Shown here piece by piece: positions 39,187 to 44,851 of a DNA stretch of 64,000 nt. Within the stretch, counting starts at the first letter, position 1. Each line of letters starts with the position of its first letter. The position numbers were made by a program, and so were the translations under genes. Below the pieces are notes generated by a model. The model did not search any database. It was given only the letters and a program-made list of their open reading frames with translations, and was not told where the DNA came from. The stretch lies in assembly GCA_950295325.1 (NCBI GenBank), contig OX485808.1, forward strand, positions 21,536,527 through 21,600,526. The letters are read 5' to 3'. This DNA is from Polytrichum commune (lineage: Eukaryota > Streptophyta > Polytrichopsida > Polytrichales > Polytrichaceae).

Positions 39187-39229
39187 TTTCACTACTACAA
39201 AAACATGGCTTATATGACTGGACATATGA

Positions 39230-39800
39230 CTACTTTGAGTTTACAAAACACTCAAATACTTTTTGACTTCCTAGTCGTTTCAGGTTAGTCTAATAAGGCA
39301 TAGTCAAATGTTATGCAATCTAAAAAACATGGTGTACATTAGACTATGGGCTGGGTATGTACATTAGATTATGCTTTTGAACTTTACATTAGACTATAGT
39401 CAGTCAATAAAACATTGATACATTAGACTACATGTAGTCGCAAGTAACAAAGTACATTAGACTACATGTAGTCACAAGTAACAAAGTACATTAGACTACG
39501 GGTAGTCAAAACACATAGAGACATTATACTATGGGTAGTTAATAAAACACACATAAGTAGACTATGGATGGTCAAATAAACTACCGTGATGATTCATCTT
39601 GACAAATATTCTGAGACATAATAGACTACTCCTAGTCAATAAAACATAGTTTGTTGTGGCGTTGTTGACTACTTGGTGTATAGTAATTGACTATATTATG
39701 GTAGGGTTTATTAGTCAATAAGAACATGACTTATATGGTTAATTGACTATCGTTTGTGTATGATATATGATGTTGGGCATAATTGACTAGTCGTTTGTCT
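39230..39800. repeat. Left subterminal repeats of the CACTA element
   Basis: Repeats of ACATTAGACTAC-n-GTAGTC and GACTATGG-n-AGTCAATAA occur about ten times. Two adjacent copies of TACATTAGACTACATGTAGTC plus CAAGTAACAAAG differ at one base. Matching motifs lie near the right end (44665-44815). Confidence 0.8.
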
Positions 39801-40719
39801 ACTTAGAGTACAAAGAACTTCAACATCACAGCATCTTACAGTAAAAAATTAGCATATTGCACTGGGTTCTTTTGCAAATTGACTAAGAAAAGATGGCAAG
39901 TTGTGTCTTTTAAACCAATCAAACACATTCATAAGACTGAAATTAGTCTCCACTAGAGTCAATAAAACTTGCAACATGAGGCTAGGTAGACAAAAAAAGG
40001 TATGTGGACCTTTACTATATATGAAGTCATGACAGTCTACAATGAGTTCCCTAGTCCACCAAGAAGAATTAGATCCTCTTTTCTCCACAAAATTGGTGCA
40101 AATTGAGAGTCATTCATCCGTACTTGTGGAGGATTCCCCGCAATGTTTGGATATTGCAACTTCGCATATTGTACCTACACTTTGTTTACCAAAACACTAA
40201 AACATCCCTCTGGAATTTCATCTCCGTTCTAGTTGTCACCTGGATAACTTGCAATTTGTCCTTGAGCAACTAAACTAAAATTCGGATCCATTATATCCAC
40301 ACCTGCACACCCCTTCCACTGCATACATCCACAAACAAATCACATGTTAGTTTGAAGTGAACATTCTCTTCCAATGTATTTGAGCAATTGGTATTCAAAC
40401 ACTCGAAACAACCCAGCTGATTCTCTTTCTGCCTGTCTCTCAAACTAGAAGACAAACATCAATATGAATTAGCACGGCCAGGAATACAAAGTATACAAAA
40501 GTATATGGGTTTATGTAGAGAGCCTCCCATTCTATGAGCTATCTATTGAGCAACTGTATTTGAGTGGTGTGTGGTTGAATGAACTATCTATTGAGCAGTT
40601 GTATGTGATTTGTAGGAGGAGCTTCTGCACGTTTGGAAAAAAAAAAGCAAAGTGAAGAATCTTAGAGGAAAAATGACACCTAACAAAAGAAAATCACATG
40701 TGGATCACATTTGGAATGA

Positions 40720-41310
40720 TTTTTGCTCTTGCCTCAAACCCTTGTTTGCTCTGGCCCAAACCCTTGCATGCCTCTTAAAGTTCTTTGAGATGATTTCTGC
40801 TCTTGCCTCAAACCCTTGCCTGCTCTTGCTTCAAACCCTTGCATGCCTTGCCTGATTGTATGTCCCCAAACCCTATCCACCCTTAATGTTTCCTTGTCTG
40901 ATTGTATGTCCTCAAACCTTTGCATGCCTTGTCTGATTGTATGTTCAACTCTTGTTTGAGATGATTTCTGGTTTATCTTGTTGAAACCCACAATCTAAAA
41001 CCCTTAGAACTACCACTTAGAAACCTTGTCTCAAACCCTCAAACTACCACTTAGAAACCTTGTCTCAAACCCTTGCTCAAACCCTTGTCTCAAACCACTT
41101 CAGATTTCAAACCCTTGTCTCAAACCCTTGCTTGCTTGAGATGATTTCTGATGATGTCTCAAACCCTTGTCTAAAACCCTTAGACCCAAACCCTTGCTTG
41201 CTTGAGATGATTTCTGAGATGATTTCTGAAACTATTGTTTGAGATGATTTTTGCTATCTTGTTGAAACTCAAACCCTTGTCTGAAACCCTCAAATTACCA
41301 CTTAGAAACC
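40720..41310 (+). repeat. Minisatellite of CAAACCCTTGTCT-type units in the CACTA element
   Basis: Short units built on CTCAAACCCTTG(C/T)CTG and TTGAGATGATTTCTG recur irregularly many times. The short open frames across it are repeat translations, not genes. Confidence 0.75.
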
Positions 41311-41792
41311 TTCAGTAGGAAACCCTCACTTACAAACTCTCACTAGGAAACCCACAATTGTCCACCCTTACTGTTCCTCACTGCATTCTTGGATTCTTGC
41401 ATTCCTCAATTCTTGCATCCGATTCTTGTATCCGATTCTTGCATTCCTTGTTCCACTTGTTTCACTGGCCTTTCCCGCCTCCATAGAATCATGTTCCCAC
41501 CTTTTTTTTAAACGTTCAAATTTTAAATACCCTATGTAGTCAATAAGTTACCTTTTGACTCACAATATGTGACATCCAGTCAATAAAAAAATATTTATAA
41601 GCACCTCTGTGACTTATGTAATCAATTAAGCACCTATTGACTAACCTTAGTGTACATGGCAAAGACCTATGTATTGCAATATCCTACATGGCAAATAGTG
41701 TTTTAATTAATTTTGTGACACACTAATATGTATATTAGCATAATGTATCAATATAATTATTATGGTATTATCCAATAATTGTTACAGTAAAC

Positions 41793-44362
41793 ATGGTGGA
41801 AGGGGAACTTGATCCCAACACCATAGAGGCTGTCCTTTGTGCTAGAGAAGAACTACAAGCAAATCGTCTTAAGCTGCATGAATATCGTTGTCCATGCAAC
41901 AAATGTCATGGTTCTCAAGTGCTCAACTGAACGACGATACGAGCACATCTCCGAAAATTCAAGCGTGACGAATTCTTCACACAATCAATTCCGGTGAGTT
42001 TTTATTTATTCATGCAATGTTGATAGTTGGATCAATTTCATTGTTTGCAACATAATGTAGATAACATGGATATCAAAGCTTGATGTTTTGCATTTATGTA
42101 TGGTGTAGGATAAACATCGCCCACAAGTGAAAAAATCAATGAGCTTGGCATTAAAGGTTTTCCTTAGGGAAGGCTTTCCCAAGCAAGAAATGTCAGCTTC
42201 ATTTGTGCCTAAGGCCATAACCCAATTGGTCAATTTTGACGTGGAGAAGAACTATGGCCAATGACCTACTCTACCAATCCCACGGATGACCCCCTTCACA
42301 TGGTGGAACCGTCAATGGGAAATTAGAATATCCACATTTCCGTACATGGGTTGGGGTCTATTTACACTTCAAAATTTGGAAGCAGAAGAAGAATTGATTC
42401 CATTTACGGGGTCTTACTACACAACCAATCAATACAAGAAGATGCAAGGTTATTTTCCAAGAGTAAAATGCTATGCATTGAATGCGGAAAAAACATTTTA
42501 CATTGATGGGGATGTGAAAAAATGGAATGTTGCAGGCTATATCAATAGCTCTATTGATAGGCGTGAGGAGATTGAGAATGTCATTTGAGAATATCATGAT
42601 GTGGATCCTAGACCATGGAACAAGAAATAATGGGGATATGTAATGACTAGGTCAACTAGGCCTATCAAAGCAGGAGAAGAACTATTTGCATATTATAAAG
42701 TAAATTTTTGAGACTTTGAGGTTAGCAATGGACCAAATAACCATTTTTTACTATAAATTTCAAAACTTTCTATTTTTGTCTTGGTTGACTTGAGAACTTT
42801 ACACTTTATTATTTAATTTCAAAATTTGGCAGGGACCGGATCCCGAGTTGGCGCCATTGGGTTGTGATCCTTATTCACTGTCAAATCGTGAATATCCCCA
42901 TACATTGGGTCGTCATGGCAATCGAATTCAAACATCTTGTATAGGTTCATTCAATGAAAACATAGATCCTGAAACTGAGTTGCATCGCATGTGTAATGAA
43001 GCATTTATCCGCTATGACGAAGTCCATGGGAATAGCTCACGCGAAGATGACATCCCTGATGAGGTGGAAAATGATGAGGATGGACATACATTGAACTCAG
43101 GAGATCCTGTGGTGGACCCCAATTTGGATGAATTACTTAAGTGGGCTAACACTCCTTTGTATCCAGGGAGTAAAGTGAAGCTCTTACAGGCTGTGTTTCT
43201 TATTCTTAATACATGCACAGTGCATGGTACTACGAATGGCCATGTAGATGAATTATTAACTCTCATTTCTGAGGATATATTGGAGCCGGGCAATTTGTTG
43301 CCGAAATCTAGATATGAAGCCAAAAAAATTCTAAGAAACCTTGGATTGTCCTATGACTCTATACACGCTTGCGAAAATGGATGCATATTGTATCGAGGGG
43401 AGCACAAGGATCTTGACAAATGCTCAAAGTACGATTGCAGCCGATATGTGAAAGGGTCGTCCACAGTCCCGCGAAAAGTACTTCGCCACTTCCCTTTGAT
43501 CCCAAGACTTAAACGAATGTACCGTTGCAAATCCATAGCTGGGCTTATGCAACATCATGCACATAATCGACCAAAAGATACATGATCTCTTGAAACAAGT
43601 GCAGAAAATGAGAATTTGGTGCGATCGGTAGCAGATTCCAAGGCTTGGAAGCACATTGACAGTATGTGGCCGGATTTTGTTGTTGAGACCCGTAACATAC
43701 GATTGGGTCTAGCTACAGACGGGATGAACCCATTTGGTGATTTCAACTTGAAACATTCTACATGGCCAATGATACTTTTAAACTATAATCTACCTCCATG
43801 GCTTGTGACAAAAAGATTTTTCGTCATGTTGGCTCTCATCATTCCTGGGAAAGATGCGGTTAAGGATCATAACTTTGATGTTTATTTAGCACCTATCATT
43901 GAAGAATTTCTCCAGCTATGGCAAGGAGTGTGGGCATATGATGTTGCTGCAATTAATGGTAACCATCGCTTCTTGTTGCGAGCTGTTTTGATGTGGACCA
44001 TACATGATTTCCCAGCCCTAGGTCTTGTTTCAGGGTGTGTAACCAAGGATTACAAGGCTTGTCCAAATTGCGGGCCAAATACAATTGCAAGGTACTCGAA
44101 ACCTATGCGGAAAATGATCTATACCGGTCATAGACGCCTACTCGCTCGCCCACATCCTTACTGAAAAAAGAAAAGCTTGTTCAATGGCAAGATAGAAAAA
44201 AGGACAAAACCACGAGCACTCTTGACAGACGAGATTATAAAAAATGCTACAGAGCGGGATGAATGGATTGCTAAAGGGGGAAAACCTGGAGCCATAAATG
44301 ACCCTGTACACTTAGAGGACAATTCAGATTACCTTGGAATTTCATCTTCAGATGAAGAATGA
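41793..44362 (+). pseudogene. CACTA transposase: zinc-binding + SET + TNP2 fusion, seven stops
   Basis: Three exons join in phase 0: 41793-41993, 42109-42720 and 42833-44362 (780 residues in frame). Exon 1 is a transposase-associated domain (HEYRCPCNKCHGSQ, then IRAHLRKF). Exon 2 has SET-like motifs at about residues 145-264: GWGLF (148-152), IPFTG, TFYIDGD, NVAGYINSS (from 207) and RPIKAGEELFAYY. Exon 3 has the TNP2 core: LGLATDGMNPFGDFN (Asp about 567), NYNLPPWLVTKRFF, MWTIHDFPALG and ACPNCGP. It ends in SSSDEE, shorter than usual TNP2 proteins, which carry further C-terminal domains. TNP2 cuts the element ends. SET domains methylate lysines, but whether this one ever did is unknown. In-frame stops: one in exon 1, four in exon 2 and two in exon 3 (six TGA, one TAA). 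This copy cannot make the full protein. Confidence 0.85.
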
Positions 44363-44851
44363 ATGTCATACCGGCTTGTGTATCTCATACGTACAAAGTA
44401 GTTATTACAAGGTGCACATAGCCATGCTTCTAATTCAATTTGTATTTGATATGCCCAAACTTTATGTAGGATCATGTGCCATGCATGCATACAAATTACT
44501 AAGTAAAAAAAACAACATATGCAATAGATAGGTTGTTTGCTACCAATAATGTATGAACCCTCAAGTTTTTAAGACCGTAGTTAGTCTAAATGTGTGATTG
44601 GGTCTTGAGTCAAAAAAACATATTCAATGCATAGTTTGCTCGCTCCCAATAATGTATGCCTCCTCTGACTTTGTGGACTATGTTTAGTCAATAAGTGCGA
44701 TTGGATTGTTGAGTCAAAAAAACCAAGGGTGATTTGGGACTATGGTCAGTCACAAAAACCACCCTGACTATGAGGTCGGGCTACCTCAGTTAAATAAACA
44801 TGGATAGTCAATTGTGCCGAGACATTAAGCCATATTTTTGTAGTAGTGTTT

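What the first reader, a model, noticed from the sequence alone, without database searches (positions are those of the whole stretch)
41793..44362. SET domain built into a CACTA TNP2 transposase
A SET-like segment (about residues 145-264) sits in the same exon and frame as transposase sequence and is spliced in phase 0 to the TNP2 core (42720 to 42833), after a phase-0 join to the zinc-binding exon (41993 to 42109). All three exon lengths are multiples of three. A transposase carrying a histone-methyltransferase-like module could act on chromatin at its targets or on its own silencing. TNP2 and SET families are well known; this architecture is an inference from the joined exons. The captured segment may instead be a passenger.
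Basis: partly seen in the sequence, partly recalled or inferred. Interest (0 to 1): 0.85.

Follow-up and report, generated by a model that had tools for sequence, protein, structure and literature searches.

The report
Jumping gene with methyltransferase-like SET exon
A family of apparently plant CACTA jumping genes carries a conserved SET (protein-methylating-enzyme-like) exon inside its transposase gene, probably made as a separate small protein sharing the transposase's first domain, which suggests that these elements carry their own chromatin tool.

Summary
The SET segment is real and is not a private passenger. The window holds a decayed CACTA element with both ends (39190-44848; 23-bp CACTA/TAGTG repeats, TTT target duplication). 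Its exon 2 matches Pfam SET over the whole profile (E 1e-8). The same genome has at least 109 related SET loci, 77 with TNP2 downstream on the same strand.

The proposed in-frame fusion to TNP2 is not supported. In all 24 copies inspected (five lineages, A-D and H) the SET frame ends at a stop 0-5 codons after the last SET motif. In the window this is TGA 42709-42711, before the proposed donor (42720).

Exon 1 ends in phase 0, and the SET and TNP2 exons both begin in phase 0. Best model: alternative 3' exons of one gene, exon 1 + SET (about 265 residues) or exon 1 + TNP2.

SET is under purifying selection (dN/dS 0.26-0.34 in four of five bootstrapped pairs). It models as a SET fold (Z 11.4 to SET8) and keeps the cofactor Asn and final Tyr, but the usual His is Ser or Asn. 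A SET-less sister lineage (N) suggests that SET is dispensable.

SET capture is reported for other transposon superfamilies, so this is a new variant. Splicing, activity and targets are untested.

The parts
39190..44848 (+). Whole CACTA element, 5659 bp, flanked by TTT (39187-39189) and TTT (44849-44851)
   Evidence: Inverted-repeat search; flanks read; two lineage-A copies have the same ends with their own 3-bp duplications, AAA in L017 and CTT in L021
39190..39212 (.). 5' terminal inverted repeat beginning CACTA, 23 nt
   Evidence: 96% complementary to the 3' arm
44826..44848 (.). 3' terminal inverted repeat ending TAGTG, 23 nt
41793..41993 (+). Exon 1: CPC..C zinc-binding-like segment, weak Transpos_assoc match; one premature stop; phase-0 donor CCG|GTGAGT
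   Evidence: the same domain matched below its cut-off in one copy each of A, B, C, D, N and H
42109..42711 (+). SET exon, read as an alternative terminal exon: acceptor TGTAG| phase 0, family stop TGA at 42709-42711; three premature stops in this copy before it
42349..42699 (+). SET domain proper (PF00856, whole profile)
   Evidence: exon-2 residues 81-197
42700..42705 (+). Possible donor AAA|GTAAAT before the stop (phase 0), the place where a SET-TNP2 fusion could leave the SET exon after the last SET motif
   Evidence: the GT is lost in L002 and absent from the B and D copies scanned
42833..44362 (+). TNP2 (Transposase_21) exon, acceptor GGCAG| phase 0; two premature stops; 3' part lacks the later transposase segments seen in L018

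Best explanation
The window holds a dead copy of a CACTA lineage whose transposase gene carries a SET exon between exon 1 (zinc-binding-like, Transpos_assoc-like) and the TNP2 exon. Shown: the element ends, the recurrence in five lineages, the conserved exon limits, the conserved stop directly after SET, the matching splice phases, purifying selection on SET in the older pairs, and the SET fold. Inferred: the gene is spliced in two ways. Exon 1 + SET + stop gives a protein of about 265 residues. Exon 1 joined past SET to TNP2 gives the transposase. The shared exon-1 domain would bring the SET protein to the same DNA or partner as the transposase. Most likely function (inferred, weaker): the SET protein methylates a lysine on histones, or on the transposase or a silencing factor, at element copies. 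This would counter host silencing, or adjust transposition, in trans. It is an accessory function, because lineage N seems to do without it.
For: SET match, E 1e-8; 5 of 5 lineage representatives match Pfam SET, H only just over the cut-off (23.1 against 22.4 bits). 109 distinct SET loci at 45% identity or more, 77 with a same-strand TNP2 within 8 kb downstream. Among the 150 SET and 150 TNP2 matches listed, no pair lies within 8 kb in a wrong order or strand. A stop lies 0-5 codons after SET in 24 of 24 distinct copies: 12 A including the window, 4 B, 4 C, 3 D, 1 H; in L004 it is TAA instead of TGA. The open frame is exactly 202 in 18 of 46 matches of the B identity band and exactly 198 in 21 of 43 of the C/D band. 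Phase-0 exon-1 donor, SET acceptor and TNP2 acceptor, with the exceptions named in the report. The SET frame starts at the acceptor TAG in A-D, L021 excepted; in the intact D copy L024 the first Met of the exon lies six residues before the MGWG motif, which argues for translation from exon 1. dN/dS of SET: A 0.26 (0.16-0.41) and 0.27 (0.17-0.44), B 0.31 (0.12-0.79), C 0.34 (0.19-0.68). SET exon identity is 0.852 against 0.593 and 0.511 in the flanking non-coding stretches for L018/L020. Fold: Z 11.4, rmsd 2.2 over 115 residues to SET8; the 50 listed rows are entries of SET enzymes or their complexes. Exon 1 shared with SET-less N. Precedent in a paper's passages: En/Spm makes tnpA and tnpD by alternative splicing (PMC2613891).
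Against: There are no RNA data; both isoforms are inferred. One C pair gives dN/dS 0.61 (0.30-1.43). The six young A pairs give 0.65-1.67 for SET, higher than TNP2 in the same pairs (0.49-1.05); this may be drift after insertion or recent relaxation of SET in A, and the selection signal rests on a few older pairs. The usual His of the NH motif is replaced in 17 of 17 rows (Ser in 15, Asn in 2), so activity is uncertain. The exon-1 Transpos_assoc matches are below the curated cut-off in 6 of 6 exon-1 peptides, and the B one matches U-box just over its own cut-off (22.2 against 21.4 bits), so the nature of exon 1 is not settled. L021 has lost the AG of the SET acceptor and L012 has a frameshift in exon 1. 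For the B and C pairs the stretches beside SET are nearly as similar as the exon (0.84-0.95 against 0.92-0.96), so they say little. A and C have a phase-0 GT before the stop, and H a GT out of phase. A and H are not resolved relative to SET-less lineages, so a single origin is not shown. 32 of the 109 loci have no listed TNP2 nearby; the list held 150 of 618 candidates. Of the 38 SET matches under 45% identity, 1 had one.
Confidence: 0.62

Rival explanations
1. A true SET-TNP2 fusion transposase exists in lineages A and C, made by a donor just before the stop (window AAA|GTAAAT at 42699/42700, phase 0) joined to the TNP2 acceptor (phase 0).
For: A GT in phase 0 precedes the stop in the 6 A and 4 C copies scanned; the phases fit.
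Against: The 4 B and 3 D copies scanned have no GT there; the A copy L002 has lost it; the stop is conserved in all five lineages, which a fusion would not need; N has exon 1 and TNP2 without SET.
Confidence: 0.12
2. The SET protein is a catalytically dead adaptor or decoy, selected for binding (to histone tails, S-adenosylmethionine or silencing enzymes) rather than for methylation.
For: The His of the FINHS motif is replaced in 17 of 17 rows of A2, by Ser in 15 and Asn in 2. MLL5 is a known inactive SET protein (PMC5094779, abstract start and passages).
Against: The Asn of that motif, which that paper reports as contacting the cofactor and whose loss it links to loss of cofactor binding, is invariant here, and so are the final Tyr and the G.G motif.
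Confidence: 0.2
3. The SET protein acts on the transposase itself, or lowers transposition (self-limitation), rather than on chromatin silencing.
For: It would share exon 1 with the transposase, so the two could pair (inference); inclusion of the SET exon would also reduce full transposase by competing for exon 1 (inference).
Against: No direct evidence. Nearest solved relatives by profile and fold are mostly histone methyltransferases, which does not settle the substrate.
Confidence: 0.2
4. Passenger: a captured host gene fragment with no function, carried along by amplification.
For: CACTA elements can carry host gene pieces (recalled; the reference list of PMC4158355 seen cites such a case). 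The window copy is decayed. Lineage N lacks SET. Young A pairs show dN/dS near or above 1 for SET.
Against: Same exon limits and stop in five lineages with near-saturated silent sites, dN/dS about 0.3 in four of five bootstrapped pairs, and flanking stretches diverged more than the exon for L018/L020. No close host SET was found among the 14 of 29 other Pfam SET places fetched (best 18.3 bits).
Confidence: 0.04

Closest known systems
HarbingerS and MuDR transposons of Phytophthora that carry SET methyltransferase genes (Kojima and Jurka, Repbase Reports 2014, as cited in PMC12730594; passages seen; the reports themselves not seen)
   Same: DNA transposons of eukaryotes that have taken up a SET-domain gene, named in that paper among transposon counter-measures against epigenetic silencing
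   Different: Other superfamilies and hosts; here the element is CACTA with TNP2, and the SET exon lies inside the transposase gene, apparently sharing exon 1. Sequence relation not tested.
TET/JBP-carrying DNA transposons of fungi, including EnSpm (PMC12730594; abstract and passages)
   Same: CACTA/EnSpm elements carrying a chromatin-related enzyme
   Different: A DNA dioxygenase, not a SET domain; fungi
En/Spm tnpA and tnpD of maize, Tgmt* of soybean (PMC2613891, passages)
   Same: One CACTA gene giving two proteins by alternative splicing; in En/Spm the large transposase ORF lies in the intron-1 region
   Different: The second protein is a DNA-binding protein; here it is a small SET exon that lies in the intron
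SETMAR/Metnase of primates (PMC6326780, PMC8994322 and PMC4593633, seen only in search listings)
   Same: SET domain and transposase in one protein or locus
   Different: A domesticated chimeric gene of a mariner transposase and a SET gene; here a multicopy mobile family, and a stop between SET and transposase
Vandal/MuDR proteins of plants that regulate their own silencing (mentioned in a PMC12730594 passage; the name VANC is recalled)
   Same: Element-encoded regulator thought to counter silencing
   Different: No SET domain (recalled); other superfamily

Membership tests
CACTA/EnSpm DNA transposon | Terminal inverted repeats beginning CACTA and ending TAGTG | tested here: met
   39190-39212 / 44826-44848; same in L017 and L021
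CACTA/EnSpm DNA transposon | 3-bp target site duplication | tested here: met
   TTT; AAA in L017, CTT in L021
CACTA/EnSpm DNA transposon | TNP2-type transposase (Transposase_21) | tested here: met
   PF02992 E 4.1e-63
CACTA/EnSpm DNA transposon | Second element protein binding subterminal repeats (TNPA-like) | not tested
   Repeats exist in the 5' part; no TNPA-like gene was sought
SET-domain family | Significant profile match over the whole domain | tested here: met
   Window E 1e-8, profile 1-105/105; 5 of 5 representatives, H over profile 36-104 only
SET-domain family | SET fold | tested here: met
   Model of the L009 core pLDDT 72.4, Z 11.4 rmsd 2.2 over 115 residues to 1zkk; an earlier full-exon model was poor, pLDDT 61.6
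SET-domain family | Asn of the cofactor-binding N-H motif | tested here: met
   Asn147 invariant in 17 of 17 rows
SET-domain family | His of the cofactor-binding N-H motif | tested here: not met
   Replaced in 17 of 17 rows, Ser in 15, Asn in 2 (L023, L024); SET proteins without it exist (MLL5 RRS, PRDM4 RKA, named in PMC5094779)
SET-domain family | Tyr of the final GEEL..(D/Y)Y motif | tested here: met
   Tyr195 invariant in 17 of 17 rows; catalytic role recalled
SET-domain family | Lysine methyltransferase activity | not testable with these tools
   needs an assay
Transposase with in-frame SET (SETMAR-like fusion) | One open frame running through SET into the transposase | tested here: not met
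   Stop 0-5 codons after SET in 24 of 24 copies; a spliced isoform leaving before the stop is not excluded for A and C
Transposase with in-frame SET (SETMAR-like fusion) | Transcript joining SET to transposase | not testable with these tools
   no RNA data held
HarbingerS / MuDR SET-carrying transposons | Harbinger or MuDR transposase | tested here: not met
   Transposase is Transposase_21
HarbingerS / MuDR SET-carrying transposons | Homologous SET gene | not tested
   their sequences are not held here

The most novel reading that the evidence does not exclude
An old CACTA lineage makes two proteins from one gene by choosing between two 3' exons: the transposase, and a dedicated SET lysine methyltransferase carrying the transposase's own targeting domain. 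The second protein writes marks on element chromatin in trans to keep the family expressed. It would be a transposon-encoded, self-targeted histone writer kept in five lineages and lost in one that may live off the others.
Probability: 0.4. Interest if true: 0.86.

Novelty: new variant of a known kind. Interest (0 to 1): 0.7.

Why it matters
Plants silence transposons through chromatin marks. An element family that keeps its own SET enzyme-like protein under selection, apparently sharing the transposase's first domain, offers a direct test of whether transposons write histone (or other lysine) marks on their own copies. The SET-less sister lineage N gives a natural comparison in the same genome. 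Of the 119 Pfam SET matches listed in this genome, 90 overlap the transposon family, a warning that counts of SET genes may be inflated by transposons.

Tried and rejected
Passenger: disfavoured.

Host gene mistaken for transposon: the 36%-identity locus L028, first taken as a possible host SET gene, turned out to be another CACTA-like element with exon 1, SET and TNP2 pieces; its ends were not sought. Origin from a host SET: of the 29 Pfam SET matches that do not overlap the family, 14 were fetched as short stretches, and none scored above 18.3 bits with the transposon profile, so no donor was found. The other 15 were not looked at.

Full-exon structure model (pLDDT 61.6, TM about 0.3) was too poor, so the SET core was modelled again. 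NCBIfam gave weak matches for 3 of 4 proteins to a bacterial SET effector family, far below its cut-off, taken as general SET likeness. Below-cut-off or marginal matches taken as chance: Ntox17 for 1 of 5 SET exons, U-box for 1 of 6 exon-1 peptides (just over its cut-off), and an antibody chain in the structure-sequence search (E 0.018).

Literature: ten searches of the open-licence PubMed Central library. No listed title or abstract start reports a SET domain in a plant CACTA element. Searches found more papers than they listed, and papers were opened only in passages (PMC12730594, PMC4158355, PMC2613891, PMC5094779). Subscription journals and Repbase Reports were not searchable. Other plants could not be searched with the tools held; the genome searched is unnamed, and that it is a plant is my inference from the type of element.

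Dropped rows and gaps: the SET and TNP2 lists hold the 150 best of 183 and 618 candidates. SET matches under 45% identity (38 of 150, the H-type ones among them) are left out of the 109 loci. L034, L035 and L037 were fetched as TNP2 places without an intact SET. L034 and L035 proved to be B relatives with no SET in the held stretch, and L037 a decayed C relative; they were kept in the tree under their own labels, and L034 and L035 were left out of the count of changes. The stop of L037 was not inspected. The motif scan found the SET end in 4 of 8 loci L001-L008; all eight were then checked by alignment. L005 and L021 are the same place and are counted once, as are L001 and the window.

Full report
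What was checked. Exon 2 matches Pfam SET over the whole profile (E 1e-8, above the curated cut-off), exon 3 matches Transposase_21 (E 4.1e-63), and exon 1 matches Transpos_assoc weakly (E 2.3e-4, below the cut-off). The frames carry stops: one in exon 1, four in exon 2, two inside exon 3. The copy is decayed. Compared with relative L018, its exon 3 passes from the TNP2 region straight to the end of the gene.

The element. Inverted repeats at 39190-39212 and 44826-44848, beginning CACTA and ending TAGTG, flanked by TTT on both sides, bound a CACTA element of 5659 bases. Two relatives have the same ends with target duplications AAA (L017) and CTT (L021). The genome (G000, 408 Mb) is unnamed; that it is a plant is inferred.

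Recurrence. Searching the window's own genome with the SET stretch gave 150 scored matches of 183 candidates. Merged, these are 143 loci, 109 of them at 45% identity or more. Of those 109, 77 have a TNP2 match within 8 kb downstream on the same strand. No listed SET and TNP2 match lay within 8 kb in a wrong order or strand. The TNP2 list held only 150 of 618 candidates, so 77 is a lower bound. Of the 38 SET matches under 45%, 1 had a listed TNP2 nearby. Sampling gave four lineages, A (the window's), B, C and D, and a fifth, H (L028 with L039), 36% identical in SET, with the same exon order. Of 119 Pfam SET matches listed genome-wide, 90 overlap this transposon family.

The stop. In all five lineages the SET frame ends at a stop 0-5 codons after the last SET motif: A TGA, B TAG, C TAA, D TGA, H TAA. 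Adding the A copies checked by alignment makes 24 of 24 distinct copies (12 A including the window, 4 B, 4 C, 3 D, 1 H). In L004 the stop is TAA instead of TGA. The open frame is exactly 202 in 18 of 46 matches of the B identity band and exactly 198 in 21 of 43 of the C/D band. The B and D copies scanned (4 and 3) have no GT between the last SET tyrosine and the stop. The A and C copies scanned (6 and 4) have one in phase 0 (window AAA|GTAAAT at 42699/42700), so a fusion isoform there is not excluded; H has a GT out of phase. One A copy, L002, has lost the GT.

Splice phases. The exon-1 donor, the SET acceptor and the TNP2 acceptor are in phase 0 in the copies where each was found (H exon 1 and SET read). 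Exceptions and gaps: L012 has a frameshift in exon 1, L021 has lost the AG of the SET acceptor, exon 1 was not found for L022, and the scan gave no TNP2 acceptor for L019. In A-D (L021 excepted) the SET frame opens at the acceptor's own TAG. In the intact D copy L024 the first Met of the exon lies six residues before the MGWG motif, so translation from exon 1 is the simplest reading. Exon 1 resembles Transpos_assoc in A, B, C, D, N and H (one copy each), below the cut-off in 6 of 6; the B one also matches U-box just over its cut-off. Lineage N (L025, L026) has the same exon 1 and a TNP2 exon about 600 bases on, with no SET match in the two 7-kb stretches. In L027 the zinc-binding-like segment and TNP2 share one frame. 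The transposase thus seems not to need the SET exon, and an exon 1-to-TNP2 join is in frame.

Trees. In the TNP2 tree (31 rows) B, C, D and N form one group (98/99), with N beside D (100/99), so N most simply lost SET. A and H are not resolved against SET-less lineages. In the SET tree (17 rows) A-D are each single groups, as in the TNP2 tree (A with weaker support, 81/93), as expected if SET and TNP2 travel together.

Selection. dN/dS of the SET exon is 0.26 (0.16-0.41) for L018/L020 and 0.27 (0.17-0.44) for L021/L020 in A, 0.31 (0.12-0.79) for L009/L010 in B, and 0.34 (0.19-0.68) for L013/L016 in C; one C pair (L013/L014) gives 0.61 (0.30-1.43). The TNP2 exon of the same pairs gives 0.19-0.32. 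The six young A pairs lie at 0.65-1.67 for SET and 0.49-1.05 for TNP2. This fits copies drifting after insertion, but it could also mean that SET has lately been relaxed in A. For L018/L020 the SET exon is 0.852 identical, against 0.593 and 0.511 in the stretches on either side. For the B and C pairs the contrast is small (0.92-0.96 against 0.84-0.95).

The SET domain. The aligned exons keep the G.G motif, the Asn of the (F/Y)IN motif and the final Tyr in 17 of 17 rows, but Ser (15 rows) or Asn (2 rows) stands where the usual His is. A paper on the inactive SET protein MLL5 (PMC5094779, passages) reports that the Asn contacts the cofactor, links its loss to loss of cofactor binding, and describes the His as pointing outwards in a ternary complex. 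The Asn is kept here, so activity is possible but not shown. Sequence profile search finds mostly histone methyltransferases (ASH1L, EZH2, MLL and others; best E 1.4e-5). The core model (pLDDT 72.4) matches SET8 at Z 11.4, and entries of SET enzymes or their complexes fill the 50 listed rows. The substrate cannot be told from this.

Mechanism. The best account is one gene with two alternative 3' ends: exon 1-SET, about 265 residues, and exon 1-TNP2. CACTA precedent: En/Spm makes tnpA and tnpD by alternative splicing, with the large ORF in the intron-1 region (PMC2613891, passages). The shared exon-1 domain would guide the SET protein to element DNA or to the transposase (inference). A role against silencing is the favoured guess. 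Self-limitation, transposase methylation and a dead adaptor remain open.

Novelty. SET genes in DNA transposons are reported for HarbingerS and MuDR of Phytophthora (PMC12730594, passages). Ten searches of the open PubMed Central library listed no title or abstract start reporting one in plant CACTA elements. This is a new variant of a known kind.

Noticed in passing
L025, L026 (G000:C6:21332501-21339500; G000:C1:36915001-36922000): Sister lineage N has exon 1 and TNP2 but no SET exon. Of the 12 TNP2 matches at 64% identity, 11 have no listed SET within 8 kb upstream, so the SET-less form seems to have spread; only two were read.
   Followed up: partly
window 39419-39581 and 40722-41444: Short direct repeats in the 5' part of the element (TAGACTA..TAGTCA type near the end, CTCAAACCCTTG type further in); possible subterminal binding sites.
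   Followed up: no
L028 joined with L039 (G000:C5:1789501-1797500): The H element shows a repeated transposase segment, suggesting an internal duplication.
   Followed up: no
genome G000: 90 of 119 Pfam SET matches listed overlap this transposon family, so automatic counts of SET genes here would be inflated.
   Followed up: partly
L034, L035: B-type elements with TNP2 but no SET in the held upstream stretch, probably deletion derivatives.
   Followed up: no
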